Below, piece after piece: positions 13,192 through 20,049 of a DNA stretch of 42,526 nt. The position numbers and the translations under genes are program-made. Under the pieces are notes generated by a model that saw nothing but the letters and a program-made list of their open reading frames with translations, was not told the DNA's origin and ran no database searches. Positions within the stretch are counted from its first letter, which is position 1. Each line of letters begins with the position of its first letter. Source of the DNA: an uncultured Lactobacillus sp. (lineage in GTDB: Bacteria > Bacillota > Bacilli > Lactobacillales > Lactobacillaceae); NCBI GenBank assembly GCA_946477855.1, contig CAMKZU010000015.1:1-42526 (forward strand), read 5' to 3'.

Positions 13192-13240
13192 AAAAATTAA
13201 ATTAGCAGATTATAATTAGATTTGAAAGGGGGATTTGAAA

Positions 13241-15295
13241 ATGAATGAGCGTATTCAAAAAATAATTTCCCTTTTGCTAAAAGAACCTAATATAACAATA
13301 TCGGAGATGATGCAAAAGTTATCGCTTAGCAGAAGACAAATTAATTATGCTGTTAAATTAATAAATAATACTTTGAGGGCAAAACATTTTCCAGAAATAA
13401 CTAGACATAAAAATGGAACTTTCGAATATGATACTTCCATTAGACTGCTAATTCAGGCAGGTAAGGAAGATCAGTTTGGTGAATTATCAGATCATGATCG
13501 TAAAGTTTTAATCATTGCTTACTTAATTTTAAAAACAAGTTATGTTTCTTTGAACCATCTGACATCTTTTCTCAAATATTCGAAGACCACAGTTATTAGT
13601 GATATTAAGGAAGCGCAAAAATTTGTTAAGAGAAATAATTTAGAAATTATTTATAATCGGGTTGAAGGATATTCTCTAAAAGGGGAAAAAGATGATATTT
13701 ATAAATTAGCAACTAAATTATTTTTAAATAATCCAAATCTAATTACAAGTGATCTAATTATATCCATCACAAAAAATAGAACAATCGCAAAAAAAGCGAC
13801 TGTTCTAATACTAGATATTGAAGAAAAATTCAAAGCTACTTTTTCGGACATATATTTTAAAGCTTTGAATAATTTGTTTCAAACAATCTTGTATAGAAGT
13901 CAAAATTCCAATTGTAAATCTAACTGTCCTTCAGATCCTTTTATCACCGAAACAAATGAATATAAATTTTTAAAAACCTATTCGGGTTTAGAAAATTTGG
14001 ATAATGTAGATTTGAAATGGTTAGTTTTAGAAATTTTAGCTTCTAACGTATATGATAAAACAAATTTACAATACGGATCAGATGAAGTAAAAATTTTACA
14101 TTTTATTCATCAAATAGTAGAGGGTTTTAAACAAAAAACGTTAGTTCAGATTGATGATCAAAAGCAGTTTGAAAAAAGATTAATGAATCATTTAAGACCT
14201 GCTTGCTATCGTGTTAAGTACGAATTGCCAAATATCGAAAAGTTAGAGTTGAATAATAGCGAAAACCACCAAATTTTATTTCAAATAATAAAAAATTTAA
14301 TTAGGTCTCTTGAAGACTGGATTGGCAAGACTTTTCCTAAAGGAGAAGTGCAATTATTAACGTATTATTTTGGTTACTTACTTGCTAGTACTCCTGAAAA
14401 TCGTGATATCAACAAACCGATCTATAAAGCTATTGTAGTTTGTTCAAACGGTATAATTATGTCAAACATTTTGATAAAAATTTTAAAAGAAATTTTACCA
14501 GAACTAAATTTCATCTGTACTATGTCAATTAGAGAATTCAACAGTTCAAAAGAAAGATTTGACATTGTTTTTACTACATTGCCATTAAATACCAACAAAA
14601 TACAGTTCGTTGTTAAGCCAAATATGAACTATTCAGAAAAAATTGGTTTACGGTATAGAGTTTTAAACCAGCTAAAGATAGAAAAAACAGATAAAGAAAT
14701 AAATAAACTTCTCGAGCTTATTTCAAGGTATGCCAATTTAACCGATAACCAAGTACTAAAAGCTGACATAAATCGAATGCTTTTAAAACAAAACTTCGAT
14801 AATTCAGATGATAAAAAATCTCATAATTTACTTTCTTATCTTCACCCTAACTATATCGTTTTAAATAAATATACAAATATCGAATGGAAAGTTGCCTTGC
14901 ATGAAGCAATTAAGCCTTTATTGAAAGACAAAAAAATTGAAAAGCGATATGAATTTGAATTACAAAGACAGATTAATAATCCAGATAATTATAGTTTTTT
15001 GGGAACTAGTATCTCTATTCCTCATTCCTTACCTAAAACTGGAATTTTGGGTAGTGGAATTGGTTTTTTAGTATCAAAAACTCCAATCGAAATGCCCTAC
15101 AACAAAACAGTCAACATTATTGCCCCGGTAGCATTTTCTCATACAGATAATAAATTAAAGGCAATTAATCAATTTACTTCTCTTGCGATGAACAAAAATA
15201 TTATTAATAAAATTTTATGCTGTAAAACGTCATTTGAAGTCTATCAAATCATCTTGAAATTTGTAGAAGAGGAGGAAAAAAATGGGGATAAATAA
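13241..15295 (+). CDS. PRD-containing transcriptional activator (BglG/MtlR type) with EIIB- and EIIA-like domains
   Basis: A 684-residue regulator. Helix-turn-helix segments lie at about residues 1-50 and 85-145, PRD-like domains at about 180-290 and 300-385, a galactitol-type EIIB-like domain with VVCSNG (Cys401) at about 396-480, and a fructose-type EIIA-like domain with IPHS (His595) at about 535-684. PRD2 keeps HLRPACYR (His317), but PRD1 lacks clear His residues at the expected places. Such proteins activate PTS operons and sense substrate through phosphorylation by HPr and EIIB. ATG 13241 is preferred over a TTG two codons earlier because AAAGGGGG is 8 bases before it. It overlaps the aldolase gene by 14 bases and likely controls this operon. 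Confidence 0.88.
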   Translation: MNERIQKIISLLLKEPNITISEMMQKLSLSRRQINYAVKLINNTLRAKHFPEITRHKNGTFEYDTSIRLLIQAGKEDQFGELSDHDRKVLIIAYLILKTSYVSLNHLTSFLKYSKTTVISDIKEAQKFVKRNNLEIIYNRVEGYSLKGEKDDIYKLATKLFLNNPNLITSDLIISITKNRTIAKKATVLILDIEEKFKATFSDIYFKALNNLFQTILYRSQNSNCKSNCPSDPFITETNEYKFLKTYSGLENLDNVDLKWLVLEILASNVYDKTNLQYGSDEVKILHFIHQIVEGFKQKTLVQIDDQKQFEKRLMNHLRPACYRVKYELPNIEKLELNNSENHQILFQIIKNLIRSLEDWIGKTFPKGEVQLLTYYFGYLLASTPENRDINKPIYKAIVVCSNGIIMSNILIKILKEILPELNFICTMSIREFNSSKERFDIVFTTLPLNTNKIQFVVKPNMNYSEKIGLRYRVLNQLKIEKTDKEINKLLELISRYANLTDNQVLKADINRMLLKQNFDNSDDKKSHNLLSYLHPNYIVLNKYTNIEWKVALHEAIKPLLKDKKIEKRYEFELQRQINNPDNYSFLGTSISIPHSLPKTGILGSGIGFLVSKTPIEMPYNKTVNIIAPVAFSHTDNKLKAINQFTSLAMNKNIINKILCCKTSFEVYQIILKFVEEEEKNGDK

Positions 15296-15899
15296 TTTTC
15301 CCAAATATACAATCATAATACGAAACTATACTTTCGATGAAGCCTACGCTATTGCTAAGGCAATCGAAGGTTTAGAACAAAATTTTGCGATGGAAATAAC
15401 AATGAATACACCGTCTGCTCCAGAATACATCAAAAACCTAAATAAAGAATTTGGTCAAAAAATCTTAATAGGTGCTGGAACAGTATTAAACCTTAAAGAT
15501 GAAATTGATGCGGTGGATGCTAATGCAAAATTTTTATTAAGTTCATGTTTGTTTAGCAAAAATATGATCGATTATGCTAAACAAAAAAACGTAATAACAA
15601 TACCAGGTGCATATACGCCTACTGAGGTATTGCAAATGCTTAATTATAAAGCAGATATAATTAAAATTTTTCCTGCAATTACAGCAGGACCGGAATATTT
15701 TAAAAATCTTCAAGGACCCTTAGGAAAAATACCACTAATGGCAGTTGGCGGAATTTCGAGTGAAAATGTCGGGATCTTTTTAAAAAATGGTGCTCAATTT
15801 ATTGGAATTGGTTCAGGTGCTTTTTTGAAAGAAGACATTATTAATAAAGATGTTCCAAAATTACGCCAGTCTCTAATTGATATAATTGAAAAGTCATAA
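15282..15899 (+). CDS. KDPG/KDPGal-family aldolase, probable 2-dehydro-3-deoxy-6-phosphogalactonate aldolase
   Basis: A 205-residue class I aldolase of the Eda/DgoA family: catalytic Glu38 in MEITMNTP, GAGTVL at 64-69, PGAYTPTE at 108-115, Schiff-base Lys128 in IKIFPA and AVGGI at 154-158. The motif that reads TLRTP in KDPG aldolases is TMNTP here, nearer to the LNSP of E. coli DgoA, which cleaves 6-phospho-KDGal to pyruvate and glyceraldehyde 3-phosphate. With a galactonate dehydratase in the same operon this is the likelier reaction. The gene overlaps its regulator by 14 bases, with GAGGAGG as ribosome site. Confidence 0.82.
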   Translation: MGINNFPKYTIIIRNYTFDEAYAIAKAIEGLEQNFAMEITMNTPSAPEYIKNLNKEFGQKILIGAGTVLNLKDEIDAVDANAKFLLSSCLFSKNMIDYAKQKNVITIPGAYTPTEVLQMLNYKADIIKIFPAITAGPEYFKNLQGPLGKIPLMAVGGISSENVGIFLKNGAQFIGIGSGAFLKEDIINKDVPKLRQSLIDIIEKS

Positions 15900-15912
15900 A
15901 GTAGGTGGTTAT

Positions 15913-16371
15913 ATGGACAGATCTTTATTGTCAGAAGATGATATTTTTATCAATCAGGAATTTGAAAGTTGTAATTCTTATTATGAAAGAATTTGTAATC
16001 ACCTATTAAGAGAAGAAAAAGTTGATATAAATTATCTCCATAGTATTAAGGAACGCGAAAAAAATTTCCCAACAGGATTAAATACAGGAAAAATTTGCGT
16101 AGCAATTCCACACACAGATTTTCAACATTGTAAAACTAATCAATTGGTTATTACAACCTTAAAACGACCAGTTTATTTTAAACAAATGGATGATCCAACT
16201 AAACTATGCGGAGTAAATATTATTATACAAATCTTATTTTACACTCCTGATAAACAAGTTGAACTTTTAAAGCAATTAATGAATTTAATTCAAAACCAAA
16301 ATTTTTTACAAGACGTATTAGATGCTAACAATAAGAAAACAATCTTAAATTTATTCGAGAAAGGTAATTAA
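15913..16371 (+). CDS. PTS EIIA component, galactitol/fructose-like
   Basis: A 152-residue single-domain EIIA. The phosphorylation site is His67 in VAIPHTD, the fructose/mannitol-type EIIA motif also used by galactitol systems. The protein takes phosphate from HPr and passes it to the EIIB encoded next. The ATG at 15913 is chosen because GTAGGTGG lies just before it; a TTG nine codons upstream lies within the aldolase gene and has no ribosome site. EIIB and EIIC follow at once, so the three form one permease. Confidence 0.85.
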   Translation: MDRSLLSEDDIFINQEFESCNSYYERICNHLLREEKVDINYLHSIKEREKNFPTGLNTGKICVAIPHTDFQHCKTNQLVITTLKRPVYFKQMDDPTKLCGVNIIIQILFYTPDKQVELLKQLMNLIQNQNFLQDVLDANNKKTILNLFEKGN

Positions 16372-16372
16372 A

Positions 16373-16672
16373 ATGAATAAAAAAACTATTATTATATGTT
16401 GTGCATCCTCGATGATCACTTCAACATTAGCTTCTGAGAAAGTTAAAAGTATAGCCTCTGAGAATGGACTTCCTATGCCAAATATAATTCAATGTAAGTT
16501 TTCAGAAGTTCAGGGAAATCTAAAAACCAATAAAGTTGACTTTATTGTTCCAACTGGAAAATTGGACAAAAATGTAACAGAAAATATTCCTGTAATCCAG
16601 GCTACTTCTTTTGTAACTGGAGTAGGCGAAGAAAAAACTAGCGCCGAAATACTAAAGGCTTTAAAAGAATAA
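16373..16672 (+). CDS. PTS EIIB component, galactitol family
   Basis: A 99-residue EIIB of the galactitol (GatB) type, with the phosphocysteine loop near the N-terminus: IIICCASSMITSTLA. By alignment with the usual CGxxxxTST pattern Cys9 should carry the phosphate; the next position, normally Gly, is a second Cys (Cys10). It starts one base after the EIIA stop, with GAGAAAGG as ribosome site. It phosphorylates the substrate carried by the EIIC at 16691. Confidence 0.85.
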   Translation: MNKKTIIICCASSMITSTLASEKVKSIASENGLPMPNIIQCKFSEVQGNLKTNKVDFIVPTGKLDKNVTENIPVIQATSFVTGVGEEKTSAEILKALKE

Positions 16673-16690
16673 GGGAGAAAGTGTGAGAGT

Positions 16691-17965
16691 ATGAATTGGG
16701 TAATTGCAGGCTTAAACTGGATTAGCGGCTTAGGACCTATGGTTATGATGCCTATTGTGATCTTCATTTTGGGTATTATTTTTAAAGTAAAAATAGGCAC
16801 ACTAATTAAATCTTCACTAACAATTGGTGTTGGTTTTGCTGGCGTTAACATTGTAATTAATTGGTTTGTACAACAGGTTGGACCATCTGTCCATTTGATG
16901 GTGAAACATTGGGGGATCCAAACAAGTATTATGGATGTAGGATGGCCAGCTAGAGCTGCCGCAACATGGGCATTTCCTTTGGCTGCGATTGTTGTATTTA
17001 TTGTTCTTGCGTTAAATATACTAATGATAATTACTAAGACAACTAATACAGTTATGGTTGATTTTTGGTCATATAATCACTATATTTTTACTGGTGCTTT
17101 AGTTTGGTATTTAACCAAAAGCGCTGTTGCAGCATTAGTTGCCTCAGCTATTGATGCTGCTATCAGTTTTAAACTAGCCGATTGGACAGCTCCTTTAGCA
17201 CAAAAATATTTTGGTTTAGAAGGAATTTCATTTCCAACAGCAAATTCAGTTGGATGGGCTCCTGTAGCTTGGGCATTAAATAAACTGTGGAGCATTATTC
17301 CTGGAATTAATAAGATTGATGGTAGACCAGAAAAGATACAAAAAAAGTTTGGCTTTGTTGGTGAACCATTGTTTATGGGTTTTATCATAGGAATCATTAT
17401 TGGCGCACTTGCAGGTGAAGACATAGGTAAAATTTTAATTGTAGGAATGAGCACATCAGCTACTATGGTTTTAACTCCTAAAATGATGCAAATTTTAATG
17501 CAGGGATTGATACCTTTTGCTAATTCTATTAAAGAACTACTTAATAAAAAGTTTCCAGGAAATAAATTTACCATTGGAATAGATGCAGCTTTGACAGTTG
17601 CTAATTCATCTGCGATTGCTTGCGGTATTATTATGGTACCGATCACATTAATATTATCAGCTATTTTACCTGGTAATCATCTGTTGCCGATTTCAGATAT
17701 TGCTTACCAAGCTATGTGGCTGTCAGCTTGGCCTGTAGCATTTAGCAAAGGTAATGTTTTTAGAGGAATACTATCAACTATCGTTATTACTTGCTTTGTT
17801 CTCTGGATTGGAACCGCTTTAGCTCCAATACATACACAACTTGCTATTGCTGGTGGTTTCCACTTAGCAAATGGAGTTAAATATATATCCACTGAGGATG
17901 CAGGTACACACATTGTAGGATTTATTATCTATAAAATAGTTGAATTATTTAAGATGATTTTTTAA
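16691..17965 (+). CDS. PTS EIIC permease, galactitol family
   Basis: A 424-residue integral membrane protein with about ten hydrophobic segments, in size and organisation like GatC. Family-like blocks include LGPMVMMPIVIFILG near the N-terminus, FVGEPLFMGFIIG in the middle and a GID motif before the last helices. It forms the translocation and substrate site of the PTS. The galactitol family carries several polyols and sugars; the dehydratase, aldolase and lactonase around it suggest a hexonate or hexonolactone here. AAGGGAG precedes the ATG by 13 bases, with GAGAG nearer. Confidence 0.87.
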   Translation: MNWVIAGLNWISGLGPMVMMPIVIFILGIIFKVKIGTLIKSSLTIGVGFAGVNIVINWFVQQVGPSVHLMVKHWGIQTSIMDVGWPARAAATWAFPLAAIVVFIVLALNILMIITKTTNTVMVDFWSYNHYIFTGALVWYLTKSAVAALVASAIDAAISFKLADWTAPLAQKYFGLEGISFPTANSVGWAPVAWALNKLWSIIPGINKIDGRPEKIQKKFGFVGEPLFMGFIIGIIIGALAGEDIGKILIVGMSTSATMVLTPKMMQILMQGLIPFANSIKELLNKKFPGNKFTIGIDAALTVANSSAIACGIIMVPITLILSAILPGNHLLPISDIAYQAMWLSAWPVAFSKGNVFRGILSTIVITCFVLWIGTALAPIHTQLAIAGGFHLANGVKYISTEDAGTHIVGFIIYKIVELFKMIF

Positions 17966-17980
17966 AACTCGAGGAAAAAT

Positions 17981-19126
17981 ATGAAAATTTCAGATTTTGT
18001 TGTTTACAAAGTAAAACCTAGATGGATATTTATAAAGATAAATACTGACGAAGGCATTTCTGGTTGGGGAGAGTTAGTTTCAGGGACGAAAACAGAAACA
18101 GTTGTTGCTGGAGCAAAAGAGATGTGCAGTAAGCTGATTGGAAAAAATCCACTTGAAATTGAAAGGATATGGCAGCGCCTTCATAGATCTTTCTTTCGTG
18201 GAGGACCAATTAATGGAACCGTAATATCAGGAATAGAAATGGCTTTATGGGACATAAAAGGTAAAACCTTAAATTTGCCAGTTTATGAACTATTAGGTGG
18301 AGCCGTTAGGGATAAGATAAAAGTTTATTCATGGATTGGCGGAGATCGTCCATCAGATGTTGTGGCAATGGCCCAAGAACGTTGGGATAAGGGTTTTAGA
18401 GCAGTTAAAATGAATGCTACTTCTGAAATGCATTATGTTGATTCTTTAGAAAAAGTGAATGCGACTGTTAAAAGAGTTGCCTCTATTCGTGAAAAATTTG
18501 GCAATGCCATGTCTATTGGCATTGACTTTCATGGGCGTGTACACAAACCAATGGCAAAAGTCTTAGCTAAAGCTTTAGAAGAATACCATCCTATGTTTAT
18601 TGAAGAACCAGTCTTACCTGAAAATGAAGAGTATTTTGCTCAAATCTCAAATGAGGTTTCAACTCCAATTGCAACTGGAGAAAGATTATACACCAGATGG
18701 GGTTTTAAAAATATTTTTAAAGAGGGAGCAGTTGATATAGTTCAACCTGATATTTCTCTTTGTGGTGGTTTACTGGAAGAGCGTAAAATAGCTGCAATGG
18801 CAGAGGCATATGATATGGCAGTTGCTCCACATGCTCCGTATGGCCCTGTAGCATTAGCTGCAACTTTTCAAGTTGATGCATGTACTCCAAATGTTTTTAT
18901 TCAAGAACAAAGTCTAGGAATTCACTATAATCAAGGTTTTGACCTACTTGATTTTGTAAAAAACAAAGAAATCTTTCAGTATAAAGATAGTTTCGTTGAC
19001 ATTCCCAAAGGTCCGGGTCTTGGCATTGAAATGGATGAAGACAAAATTAAAGATGTCGCACAAGAGGGATTAGTATGGAACAATCCGGCTTGGGTCAATG
19101 ATGATGGCACTATTGCCGAATGGTAA
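17981..19126 (+). CDS. dgoD: D-galactonate dehydratase-like enzyme (enolase superfamily)
   Basis: The 381-residue protein follows E. coli DgoD from end to end (start MKI, end AEW). All active-site residues I recall for DgoD are kept one position earlier: metal ligands Asp182, Glu208 and Glu234, His184 in DFHGR, His284 in APHAPYGP and Glu309 in IQEQS. DgoD removes water from D-galactonate to give 2-dehydro-3-deoxygalactonate. In this operon no kinase converts that product to the aldolase substrate, so this enzyme may instead act on a 6-phosphorylated acid made by PTS uptake; that is inference. CGAGGAAAAAT precedes the ATG. Confidence 0.88.
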   Translation: MKISDFVVYKVKPRWIFIKINTDEGISGWGELVSGTKTETVVAGAKEMCSKLIGKNPLEIERIWQRLHRSFFRGGPINGTVISGIEMALWDIKGKTLNLPVYELLGGAVRDKIKVYSWIGGDRPSDVVAMAQERWDKGFRAVKMNATSEMHYVDSLEKVNATVKRVASIREKFGNAMSIGIDFHGRVHKPMAKVLAKALEEYHPMFIEEPVLPENEEYFAQISNEVSTPIATGERLYTRWGFKNIFKEGAVDIVQPDISLCGGLLEERKIAAMAEAYDMAVAPHAPYGPVALAATFQVDACTPNVFIQEQSLGIHYNQGFDLLDFVKNKEIFQYKDSFVDIPKGPGLGIEMDEDKIKDVAQEGLVWNNPAWVNDDGTIAEW

Positions 19127-20049
19127 TGACTATGATTAATACTGTTAAAGGAACCATATCTTCAAATGACTTGGGCGTTACTTATATACATGATCATCTC
19201 TTTGTAAATCCAAATCCCTTACCTGAATATAAAGACTATGTTTTTGATGACGTAGATAAAAGCATTGCTGAGGCTATAGACTTTAAAAATAATGGTGGTA
19301 GTACGATCATAGATCTGACTCCGATAAACTATGGCAGAAATCCTATTGCTTTACAAAAAATTTCTGAAGGAGCAAATATTAATATAGGTTTTGTTACAGG
19401 ATTCCACAAAGAAGAATTTATGCCAAAGTGGATTGATAAAATGTCGGATAAACAAATATTTGATTTTTTAGTTAATGAAATTGAAAATGGAGTTAGTTCA
19501 CGTCATCTATTACCCGTTGCCATGAAAGCAGGAACAAGTTTTAAGCAAATAACAAAGAGGGAAAAACGGATCCTACAAATTGAGGGTAAGGTTCAGAAGG
19601 CTACCCATATTCCTATGATTACTCATTGTGATAAAGGAACGATGGCTATGGAACAGGTTGAAATTTTAAGAGGTCAAGGGGCAGACTTAAAGCATATTTG
19701 CTTAAGCCATGTAGATATTCCAAAAAATATAGACTATATTGAAAGAATATGTGATACTGGAGTAAATATAAGTTTTGACCATATTGGCCGTGAGTTAAGC
19801 ACTAATGATAGAGATCGCATACAAATGCTTTGTAAATTAGTTGAGGATGGCTATGTAGATCATATTTGTTTATCAGGTGATATGGGGAGGAAATCATATT
19901 TTTTATCATACAAAGGTAAACCAGGATTGCGATATATTATTACAACATTAAAGCAATCGTTGGTGCCATTAATAGGTAATGATAATTTTGCTAAAATGGT
20001 TATTGATAATCCTAAAAGAGTACTAGAGAATAAAGAGTCAATCGGATAA
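19126..20049 (+). CDS. Phosphotriesterase-family hydrolase, probable (phospho)lactonase
   Basis: A 307-residue amidohydrolase-superfamily protein of the phosphotriesterase family. The binuclear metal site is complete: His22 and His24 (IHDH), carboxylated Lys134 (MKAGTS), His167 (ITHCDKG), His195 (SHVD) and Asp252 (LSGDMGR). Bacterial relatives include lactonases; some from Firmicutes open phosphorylated furanose lactones. Next to a sugar-acid dehydratase, opening a hexonolactone, perhaps phosphorylated, is the natural role. Three in-frame ATGs (19120, 19126, 19132) are possible; 19126 overlaps the dgoD stop as TAATG. No strong ribosome site is visible. A strong terminator follows. Confidence 0.8.
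   Translation: MTMINTVKGTISSNDLGVTYIHDHLFVNPNPLPEYKDYVFDDVDKSIAEAIDFKNNGGSTIIDLTPINYGRNPIALQKISEGANINIGFVTGFHKEEFMPKWIDKMSDKQIFDFLVNEIENGVSSRHLLPVAMKAGTSFKQITKREKRILQIEGKVQKATHIPMITHCDKGTMAMEQVEILRGQGADLKHICLSHVDIPKNIDYIERICDTGVNISFDHIGRELSTNDRDRIQMLCKLVEDGYVDHICLSGDMGRKSYFLSYKGKPGLRYIITTLKQSLVPLIGNDNFAKMVIDNPKRVLENKESIG

What the first reader, a model, noticed from the sequence alone, without database searches (positions are those of the whole stretch)
15282..20049. Kinase-free sugar-acid operon: a possible fully phosphorylated hexonate or hexonolactone pathway
Seen: one operon encodes a galactitol-type PTS (EIIA, EIIB, EIIC), a phosphotriesterase-family protein with an intact metal site, a DgoD-like dehydratase with all catalytic residues, and a KDPGal-type aldolase, but no KDG/KDGal kinase. 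Known: DgoD normally uses unphosphorylated galactonate, while the aldolase needs a 6-phosphate; the D-glucosaminate (dga) route combines PTS import, dehydration and an Eda-like aldolase without a kinase, and some phosphotriesterase-family proteins open phosphorylated lactones. Inference: the PTS imports galactonolactone or a related compound as its 6-phosphate, the lactonase opens it, the dehydratase acts on the phosphorylated acid, and the aldolase yields pyruvate and glyceraldehyde 3-phosphate. This would be a new substrate form for a DgoD-type enzyme.
Basis: partly seen in the sequence, partly recalled or inferred. Interest (0 to 1): 0.72.

Follow-up and report, generated by a model that had tools for sequence, protein, structure and literature searches.

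The report
Kinase-free PTS sugar-acid degradation operon
This lactic-acid-bacterium operon appears to import a galactonate-like sugar acid or its lactone already phosphorylated and to break it down without the usual kinase, using a dehydratase from a clade whose active-site region differs from the standard enzyme; no enzyme was assayed.

Summary
The operon is real and intact at the stated coordinates; a PRD/EIIA-type regulator directly upstream also belongs to it. In one search, all 36 of 113 distinct DgoDs with a galactitol-type EIIC within 9 kb fall in one clade (support 1.0). They share G35, T36, F72, T80, A285, Y287 and L or M at 260; the 36 with a DgoK- or KdgK-like kinase within 9 kb and no EIIC have E35, G36, Y72, S80, L287 and H260 without exception. 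A later phylum sample kept the split: 2 of 16 hits had the signature and both had EIIC; 14 had neither (one of the 14 seen before). Of 28 other genomes with this DgoD, 7 near-complete ones show no recognisable KDG/KDGal kinase; 21 carry some candidate. The lactonase gene goes only with one EIIC lineage (4 of 4 loci; 0 of 38 with other EIICs), suggesting exchangeable entry modules: lactone versus free acid. Best reading: PTS, aldonate 6-phosphate, DgoD-type dehydration, KDPGal, then aldolase to pyruvate plus glyceraldehyde 3-phosphate. Substrate identity, chain length and stereochemistry are inferred; nothing was assayed.

The parts
13235..15295 (+).
   Evidence: PF00874 PRD, PF00359 EIIA, PF08279 HTH; a similar gene lies upstream of the aldolase in L164, L165, L008-L010 and most of the Lactobacillales loci
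15282..15899 (+). KDPG/KDPGal-type class I aldolase (DgoA/Eda superfamily), Lys128 and Glu38 kept
   Evidence: PF01081; PDB relatives include DgoA 2v81/2v82; alignment A2
15886..16371 (+). PTS EIIA, Gat/Fru type; His in the motif IPH, shared with the L008 protein
   Evidence: PF00359; sequences
16373..16672 (+). PTS EIIB, Gat type; Cys10 matches the Cys of the L007 and L008 proteins
   Evidence: PF02302; NF007643 56.9 bits, below its cut-off of 95; sequences
16691..17965 (+). PTS EIIC, GAT family, of the lineage seen here only with the PTE gene
   Evidence: PF03611; 74-82% identity to EIIC of L007, L164, L165 and 35-39% to the commoner lineage
17981..19126 (+). DgoD-type dehydratase of the PTS-linked clade (G35, T36, F72, M87, L260, A285, Y287)
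   Evidence: NF010624 612.5 bits; tree and switched residues; model pLDDT 87.6, nearest PDB 3rra, TM 0.93
19120..20049 (+). PTE-family amidohydrolase, probable phospho-aldonolactone lactonase
   Evidence: PF02126; nearest PDB sequences 3pnz and 3msr; H24, H26, K136, H169, H197, D254; relatives of 55-59% identity found only in the same operon type, in 72,556 plasmid records and 397 genomes of the family

Best explanation
A PTS-coupled, kinase-free route for a hexonic acid of the galactonate type. The galactitol-type PTS (EIIA/B/C) imports the acid or, with the EIIC lineage in this window, its lactone, and phosphorylates the primary hydroxyl (C6) during uptake. The PTE-family protein opens the 6-phospho-lactone. 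The DgoD-type enzyme, from a clade with changed residues around the active site, dehydrates the 6-phosphorylated acid to 2-keto-3-deoxy-6-phosphogalactonate. The aldolase splits this into pyruvate and glyceraldehyde 3-phosphate. The PRD/EIIA regulator senses the PTS state. Shown: gene content, conserved catalytic residues, the clade, the switched residues, and co-occurrence with and without kinases. Inferred: each reaction, the substrate form, and galactonate as the substrate.
For: 1) In 113 distinct DgoDs (one fragment and four duplicates dropped), all 36 with a GAT-type EIIC within 9 kb lie in one clade, support 1.0, with L018, whose contig starts at the gene. None of the other 77 has one in the stretch held (13 of the 77 have under 4 kb on one side). 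2) Switched positions: G35/T36/F72/T80/Y287 in 36 of 36 against E35/G36/Y72/S80/L287 in 36 of 36 kinase-linked; L (33) or M (3) at 260 against H260. Over all 77 others E35, H260 and L287 are each in 76, the exception being L018. Ten such columns mark this clade; unrelated clades reach at most 1 (53 tested). Positions 35-36 are a capping-domain loop (strand 27-33, helix 38-50); 260, 285 and 287 follow D257 and H284. 3) Later phylum sample (398 genomes, 18 with DgoD, 16 outside the earlier genome sample): 2 signature DgoDs, both with EIIC and aldolase and no kinase hit in the stretch; 14 without the signature, none with EIIC, 11 with a kinase hit. 4) One genome (G315) holds both: signature DgoD with PTS, and E35/H260 DgoD beside DgoK. 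5) Seven of 28 other genomes with this DgoD, 98-100% complete, show no DgoK, KdgK-like or fusion-type KDG kinase (two of the seven have only a ribokinase); one (G429) has the PTE version. 6) EIIC lineage I and PTE occur together in 4 of 4 loci and PTE in 0 of 38 others, while the four DgoDs are not a clade. 7) Precedent: the dga route imports D-glucosaminate by a PTS as the 6-phosphate and ends in an aldolase (PMC9529869, passages).
Against: No activity was measured, and no coordinates were available to place residue 35 or 260 against the substrate. The clade is a single evolutionary event with a long stem (0.25), so some switches may be hitch-hiking. Twenty-one of 28 genomes have a kinase candidate (10 KdgK-like, 8 fusion-type, 3 broken or partial), and G000 is only 67% complete. 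With wider kinase queries, 4 of the 36 PTS loci have a PfkB-family hit 4-7.4 kb away: ribokinases in L141 and L147, a fructokinase-like one in L144, but in L135 one that scores best, below cut-off, as the fusion-type KDG kinase. NF045706 (phospho-furanose lactonase) scores 135 against a cut-off of 630; of five phosphate ligands recalled for MS53_0025, only the Arg and one Tyr are kept (R257, Y260), by reading the alignment. Gat EIICs phosphorylate C1 of galactitol (recalled), which corresponds to C6 of L-galactonate rather than of D-galactonate, so stereochemistry is open. L130 (G247) has a truncated EIIC and no EIIA, EIIB or aldolase hit.
Confidence: 0.67

Rival explanations
1. Ordinary De Ley-Doudoroff route: DgoD acts on free galactonate, a KDG/KDGal kinase elsewhere in the genome phosphorylates the product, and the PTS brings in another compound or its product is dephosphorylated first.
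For: DgoD passes the galactonate dehydratase model (612.5 bits). Twenty-one of 28 genomes with this DgoD have a kinase candidate; in L135 a KDG-kinase-like gene lies 7.3 kb from dgoD. Some lineage-II operons carry a histidine-phosphatase-family gene (L010, L126-L128, L133).
Against: Seven near-complete genomes have the operon and no recognisable kinase. Kinase-linked DgoDs are a different set, with E35 and H260 in all 36. No DgoK hit lies within 9 kb of any of the 36 EIIC-linked DgoDs.
Confidence: 0.15
2. Same kinase-free logic on a phosphorylated pentonate, such as L-arabinonate 5-phosphate, with the aldolase giving pyruvate and glycolaldehyde phosphate.
For: A PTE-family relative, MS53_0025 (taken here to be 3msr, from recall), opens L-arabino- and D-xylono-1,4-lactone-5-phosphate (review PMC10971088, passage). 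L-arabinonate has the galactonate stereochemistry at C2-C4 (recalled).
Against: The aldolase and the dehydratase are closest to the hexonate enzymes DgoA/Eda and DgoD. The window PTE protein scores far below the phospho-furanose lactonase cut-off. Glycolaldehyde phosphate is a poor end product (recalled).
Confidence: 0.12
3. The PTE-family protein is not a lactonase here but cleaves another linkage (ester or glycoside-like) of a phosphorylated galactonate derivative brought in by EIIC lineage I. This concerns the entry step only and can be true together with the main reading.
For: PTE strictly follows EIIC lineage I, which fits any substrate-specific entry step. Phosphate ligands of the known lactonases are only partly kept (ligand list recalled).
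Against: Its nearest solved relatives include, by recall of the entry's name, a proven phospho-lactonase, and a PTE-family gene also sits beside DgoD and DgoK in L077.
Confidence: 0.2

Closest known systems
De Ley-Doudoroff galactonate pathway (E. coli dgoRKADT)
   Same: Dehydratase of the same family (50% identity to E. coli DgoD) and an aldolase of the DgoA/Eda superfamily
   Different: E. coli K-12 has a proton symporter and DgoK in the operon (annotation); here a PTS and no kinase, and the residues E35, Y73, Q88, H261, L288 (E. coli numbering) are all changed
D-glucosaminate (dga) pathway of Salmonella
   Same: PTS import as the 6-phosphate, a lyase on the phosphorylated acid, then an aldolase, no kinase mentioned (PMC9529869, passages)
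   Different: Mannose-family PTS (title of its ref. 1) and a PLP ammonia-lyase instead of a GAT-family PTS and an enolase-superfamily dehydratase
L-ascorbate Ula system with UlaG lactonase (recalled)
   Same: PTS import of a lactone as its 6-phosphate followed by a metal-dependent lactonase
   Different: UlaG is a metallo-beta-lactamase-fold enzyme, and the later steps are epimerases and a decarboxylase (recalled)
Phospho-furanose lactonases MS53_0025 and MAG_6390
   Same: PTE-family amidohydrolases; window protein keeps the metal residues and two of five recalled phosphate ligands
   Different: Score 135 against a cut-off of 630; three recalled phosphate ligands not kept
6-phosphogluconate dehydratase Edd (recalled)
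   Same: Dehydrates a 6-phosphorylated aldonic acid to a KDPG-type product
   Different: IlvD/EDD family, iron-sulfur enzyme, unrelated to the enolase superfamily

Membership tests
D-galactonate dehydratase DgoD (NF010624/PRK14017) | Score over the curated cut-off | tested here: met
   612.5 bits against 311
D-galactonate dehydratase DgoD (NF010624/PRK14017) | Metal ligands and catalytic His/Asp/Glu | tested here: met
   D182, H184, E208, E234, D257, H284, E309, as in E. coli DgoD (roles recalled)
D-galactonate dehydratase DgoD (NF010624/PRK14017) | Residues invariant in kinase-linked members (E35, G36, Y72, S80, Q87, H260, L287) | tested here: not met
   G, T, F, T, M, L, Y in the window protein
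D-galactonate dehydratase DgoD (NF010624/PRK14017) | Activity on unphosphorylated D-galactonate | not testable with these tools
   needs an enzyme assay
De Ley-Doudoroff pathway | KDGal kinase (DgoK) in the operon or genome | tested here: inconclusive
   No kinase in the operon; DgoK 0 in G000, which is 67% complete; 1 of 28 related genomes, there in a separate DgoD operon; other kinase candidates in 21 of 28
Galactitol PTS (TIGR00827 EIIC-GAT) | Score over the curated cut-off | tested here: not met
   388.5 bits against 542.2; PF03611 domain met, 241 against 24.2
Phospho-furanose lactonase (NF045706) | Score over the curated cut-off | tested here: not met
   135.4 against 630
PTE-family amidohydrolase (PF02126) | Domain and binuclear metal residues | tested here: met
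   176 bits against 22.4; H24, H26, K136, H169, H197, D254 (alignment)
KDPGal aldolase DgoA / KDPG aldolase Eda | Score over the curated cut-offs (NF006600, TIGR01182) | tested here: not met
   115.6 against 207 and 120.5 against 156.05; superfamily PF01081 met and Lys128, Glu38 kept
dga-like PTS-coupled phosphorylated sugar-acid route | PTS, lyase and aldolase genes together, no kinase gene | tested here: met
   reaction chemistry not tested

The most novel reading that the evidence does not exclude
A whole clade of enolase-superfamily 'galactonate dehydratases' in Bacillota works on the 6-phosphorylated acid after PTS uptake, marked by loss of a conserved acidic residue (E35 to G) and of H260, and is combined with interchangeable entry modules: one EIIC alone for the free acid, another EIIC plus a PTE-family lactonase for the lactone. 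It would be the first enolase-superfamily sugar-acid dehydratase known to me to use a phosphorylated substrate.
Probability: 0.6. Interest if true: 0.7.

Novelty: new variant of a known kind. Interest (0 to 1): 0.6.

Why it matters
Records name these proteins galactonate dehydratase and galactitol PTS (for example), so models of lactobacilli and enterococci may get substrate, transporter and energy balance wrong. If true, the sugar acid is phosphorylated once, by the PTS, and no ATP is spent on a kinase; a well-studied superfamily gains a new substrate form; and a few residues (35, 72, 260, 287) become a simple test for telling phosphorylated from unphosphorylated routes. The operon is also carried on plasmids of enterococci and Latilactobacillus. 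Two comparative-genomics papers mention these genes as galactitol PTS and galactonate enzymes, without proposing a route in the passages read (PMC6042284, PMC10117131).

Tried and rejected
Considered: simple gene loss of the kinase in one incomplete genome. Rejected because the arrangement recurs in 42 EIIC-bearing loci (before de-duplication) and in 7 near-complete genomes without a recognisable kinase.

Considered: that all PfkB hits below the best KdgK class were other sugar kinases. Rejected after one search showed a second class close to the kinase part of the KHG/KDPG aldolase-kinase fusion (NF041633); my interim count of kinase-free genomes fell from 17 to 7.

Considered: that no PTS locus has any kinase hit nearby except L147, as the first query set showed. 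A check with wider queries found three more (L135, L141, L144), told in the Against line; best-explanation confidence was lowered from 0.68 to 0.67 and the first rival raised from 0.14 to 0.15 for L135.

Considered: the lactonase as an essential step. Rejected; 38 of 42 EIIC-bearing loci lack it.

Dropped rows: L011 dgoD (interrupted) and duplicates L125, L130, L131, L133. An earlier count said 10 kinase-linked of 14; the call itself shows 11. The 36 kinase-linked DgoDs are those found with E. coli DgoK, E. coli KdgK and one Enterococcus DgoK as queries; with wider queries the number is 38 of 76 (E. coli itself not counted). Those kinases are called by similarity and were not named one by one.

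Led nowhere: a CcpA-site search (0 matches, pattern recalled); promoter and terminator scans (promoters 50 found against 42.5 in shuffles). Paper searches listed no paper that, from its title and the part of the abstract shown, proposes this route; one search showed 15 of 86 hits. One listed paper on agaro-oligosaccharides (PMC13204991) names 2-keto-3-deoxy-6-phosphogalactonate and was not read. This covers only the held open-licence library and those terms; passages of five papers were read.

Recalled, from no call: the five phosphate ligands of MS53_0025 and that it is PDB 3msr; the catalytic and metal roles of the residues named; galactitol phosphorylation at C1; the Ula and Edd comparisons; stereochemical remarks. 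I also recalled, but did not use as evidence, that the residue of a mannonate dehydratase matching position 35 lies in its active site.


Full report
Observation. Family scans identify an aldolase of the KDPG/KDPGal superfamily, EIIA, EIIB and EIIC of the galactitol type, a DgoD-type dehydratase (NF010624, 612.5 bits, cut-off 311) and a PTE-family amidohydrolase. Directly upstream, overlapping the aldolase by 14 bases, is a regulator with PRD and EIIA domains (13235-15295), which belongs to the operon. Catalytic residues are intact in the dehydratase, the amidohydrolase and the aldolase; their roles are recalled.

Own genome. The window lies in G000, 1.34 Mb in 32 contigs, 66.85% complete. A DgoK search gave none. 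Its six PfkB-family hits score best as two ribokinases and a 1-phosphofructokinase, a 1-PFK-type hexose kinase below cut-off and two hydroxymethylpyrimidine-kinase pieces. Absence in one genome of this completeness proves little, and I turned to relatives.

Relatives. A similarity search of plasmids (36 records, 20 listed) found the same operon with the PTE gene on an Enterococcus faecium plasmid (L007; its aldolase and regulator lie across the record start). Sister operons without the PTE gene, carrying instead a small hypothetical gene, are on plasmids of E. durans, E. faecalis, E. faecium and Latilactobacillus curvatus. A different plasmid region pairs an interrupted dgoD with DgoK and an aldolase, without a GAT-type EIIC. 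I opened 6 of the 36 plasmid records.

A scan of one genome per species (80 best loci kept of 574) and neighbour annotation by tblastn showed that only the nearest DgoDs sit near a GAT-type EIIC. A survey of 395 Lactobacillales genomes found DgoD in 27, with 28 matches at E 1e-80. Twenty-seven matches, the window included, lie near an EIIC; one, in G315, lies beside DgoK and an aldolase with no PTS, although the same genome also has a PTS-linked copy. One operon (L130, G247) is eroded: truncated EIIC, no EIIA, EIIB or aldolase hit.

Clade and residues. After dropping one fragment and four duplicates, 113 DgoDs were aligned and a tree built. The 36 proteins with an EIIC within 9 kb plus L018, whose contig begins at the gene, form one clade with support 1.0. 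G35, T36, F72, T80, A285 and Y287 occur in 36 of 36; M87 in 33 (I in 3); L260 in 33 (M in 3). In 36 proteins with a DgoK- or KdgK-like hit within 9 kb and no EIIC, the residues are E35, G36, Y72, S80, Q87, H260 and L287 in 36 of 36, and C285 in 35. Over all 77 proteins without EIIC: E35 76, G36 74, Y72 77, S80 76, Q87 76, H260 76, C285 75, L287 76; 13 of these 77 have less than 4 kb of sequence on one side, so an EIIC could be out of view there. L018 has part of the signature (SGTKT, A285, Y287, but Y72, I87, V260). Among 53 clades tested, 10 columns switch cleanly for this clade; only nested, enclosing or complementary clades come near, and unrelated ones reach at most 1. The clade also has the longest stem among the 25 clades printed (0.25), so the control is suggestive rather than conclusive. 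A model of the window protein (pLDDT 87.6; nearest PDB 3rra, TM 0.93) places 35-36 in the loop between a capping-domain strand (27-33) and helix (38-50). Residues 260, 285 and 287 follow D257 and H284, which by recall sit at the ends of barrel strands. I could not measure distances to a substrate.

Kinases near the operon. With the first queries, of the 36 PTS loci only L147 had a kinase hit in range. With wider queries four have one 4-7.4 kb away: L141 and L147 ribokinases, L144 fructokinase-like, and L135 a protein that scores best as the fusion-type KDG kinase, below cut-off.

Later sample. A phylum-wide sample of 398 genomes gave 18 with DgoD, 16 outside the genomes searched before. The two with the signature have EIIC (about 4 kb upstream) and an aldolase and no kinase hit in the fetched stretch. 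The 14 without it have no EIIC, and 11 have a kinase hit in the fetched stretch. One of the 14 (L223) is probably the same record as L073.

Kinases in whole genomes. In 28 other genomes with this DgoD (26 plus G613 and G429), DgoK occurs in 1, G315. KdgK-like proteins (E below 1e-59) occur in 10, with a fragment in G077. A second class, like the kinase half of the aldolase-kinase fusion NF041633, occurs strongly in 8 further genomes, broken in G010 and split in G168. Seven genomes (G429, G074, G202, G065, G249, G387, G172; 98-100% complete) have none of these; G387 and G172 have a ribokinase. G429 carries the PTE version of the operon. Unknown kinase families cannot be excluded.

Entry modules. 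Forty-two EIIC-bearing loci (before de-duplication) carry EIICs of four lineages: lineage I (window, L007, L164, L165; 74-82% to the window), lineage II (31 loci, 55-100% to L008, support 0.98), a third (L020, L148-L150, L213, L214) and L017. The PTE gene is in 4 of 4 lineage-I loci and in 0 of the other 38. The four lineage-I DgoDs are not a clade: L007 groups with Enterococcus proteins, L164 and L165 with Lactobacillaceae proteins of lineage-II operons, and the window apart. EIIC and PTE therefore appear to travel together and to be swapped onto the same core. The simplest reading is lactone entry against free-acid entry.

Lactonase. The nearest solved sequences are 3pnz and 3msr. A review passage states that Ms0025 and Mag6390 open D-xylono- and L-arabino-1,4-lactone-5-phosphate (PMC10971088); that Ms0025 is 3msr is my recall, as is its list of phosphate ligands. 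Two of those five, an Arg and a Tyr, correspond to R257 and Y260 and are kept in the four operon proteins (alignment); three are not. In L077 (Lactonifactor), where a PTE-family gene sits with a kinase-type DgoD and DgoK and no EIIC hit, those two positions read Lys and Gln. This fits a phosphorylated substrate only in the PTS-linked case but rests on few sequences.

Conclusion. The best-supported mechanism is a PTS-coupled route on a 6-phosphorylated hexonate of the galactonate type, with an optional lactonase. It works like the dga route (PMC9529869, passages) but uses an enolase-superfamily dehydratase. DgoD passes the family score but not the residue pattern of kinase-linked members, so I file it as a distinct subgroup whose substrate form needs an assay. 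The rivals are a normal route with a kinase elsewhere and a pentonate version.

Literature. Ten searches of the held open library listed no paper that, from its title and the part of the abstract shown, proposes this route. Two papers mention the genes in passing as galactitol PTS and galactonate enzymes (passages).

Noticed in passing
L077:7364-11200: Lactonifactor longoviformis has aldolase, a PTE-family gene, a kinase-type DgoD and DgoK in a row, without an EIIC hit: possibly an unphosphorylated galactonolactone route.
   Followed up: partly
L018:1-10138: An Oscillospiraceae contig starts in a DgoD with only part of the PTS signature (Y72, I87, V260), followed by tripartite-tricarboxylate-like transporter genes, an IlvD/EDD-like dehydratase, a second DgoD and a sulfatase-like gene (names other than DgoD by eye).
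   Followed up: partly
L017:5546-14500: A Megasphaera cluster puts a signature DgoD beside HPr-like, UxaA-like, two dehydrogenase-like genes, a phosphatase-like gene and a divergent EIIC (names by eye): perhaps several sugar acids feed one route.
   Followed up: no
L010:1165-10018 and L007:5037-9523: On Enterococcus plasmids the operon lies near IS6-family elements (IS1216 on both sides in L010; ISS1N and IS1216 in L007), so it may move as a cassette.
   Followed up: no
L011:6731-7879: The dgoD on E. faecium plasmid NZ_LR135365.1, beside DgoK, is interrupted: frames of 62 and 267 aa are listed.
   Followed up: no
L010:8173-8664; L009:8202-8804: Many lineage-II operons carry a small hypothetical gene (about 160-200 aa, membrane-like N-terminus by eye) after dgoD, in some loci followed by a histidine-phosphatase-family gene.
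   Followed up: no
L135:15435-16403: A PfkB-family kinase that scores best, below cut-off, as the kinase part of the KHG/KDPG aldolase-kinase fusion lies 7.3 kb from a signature dgoD.
   Followed up: partly
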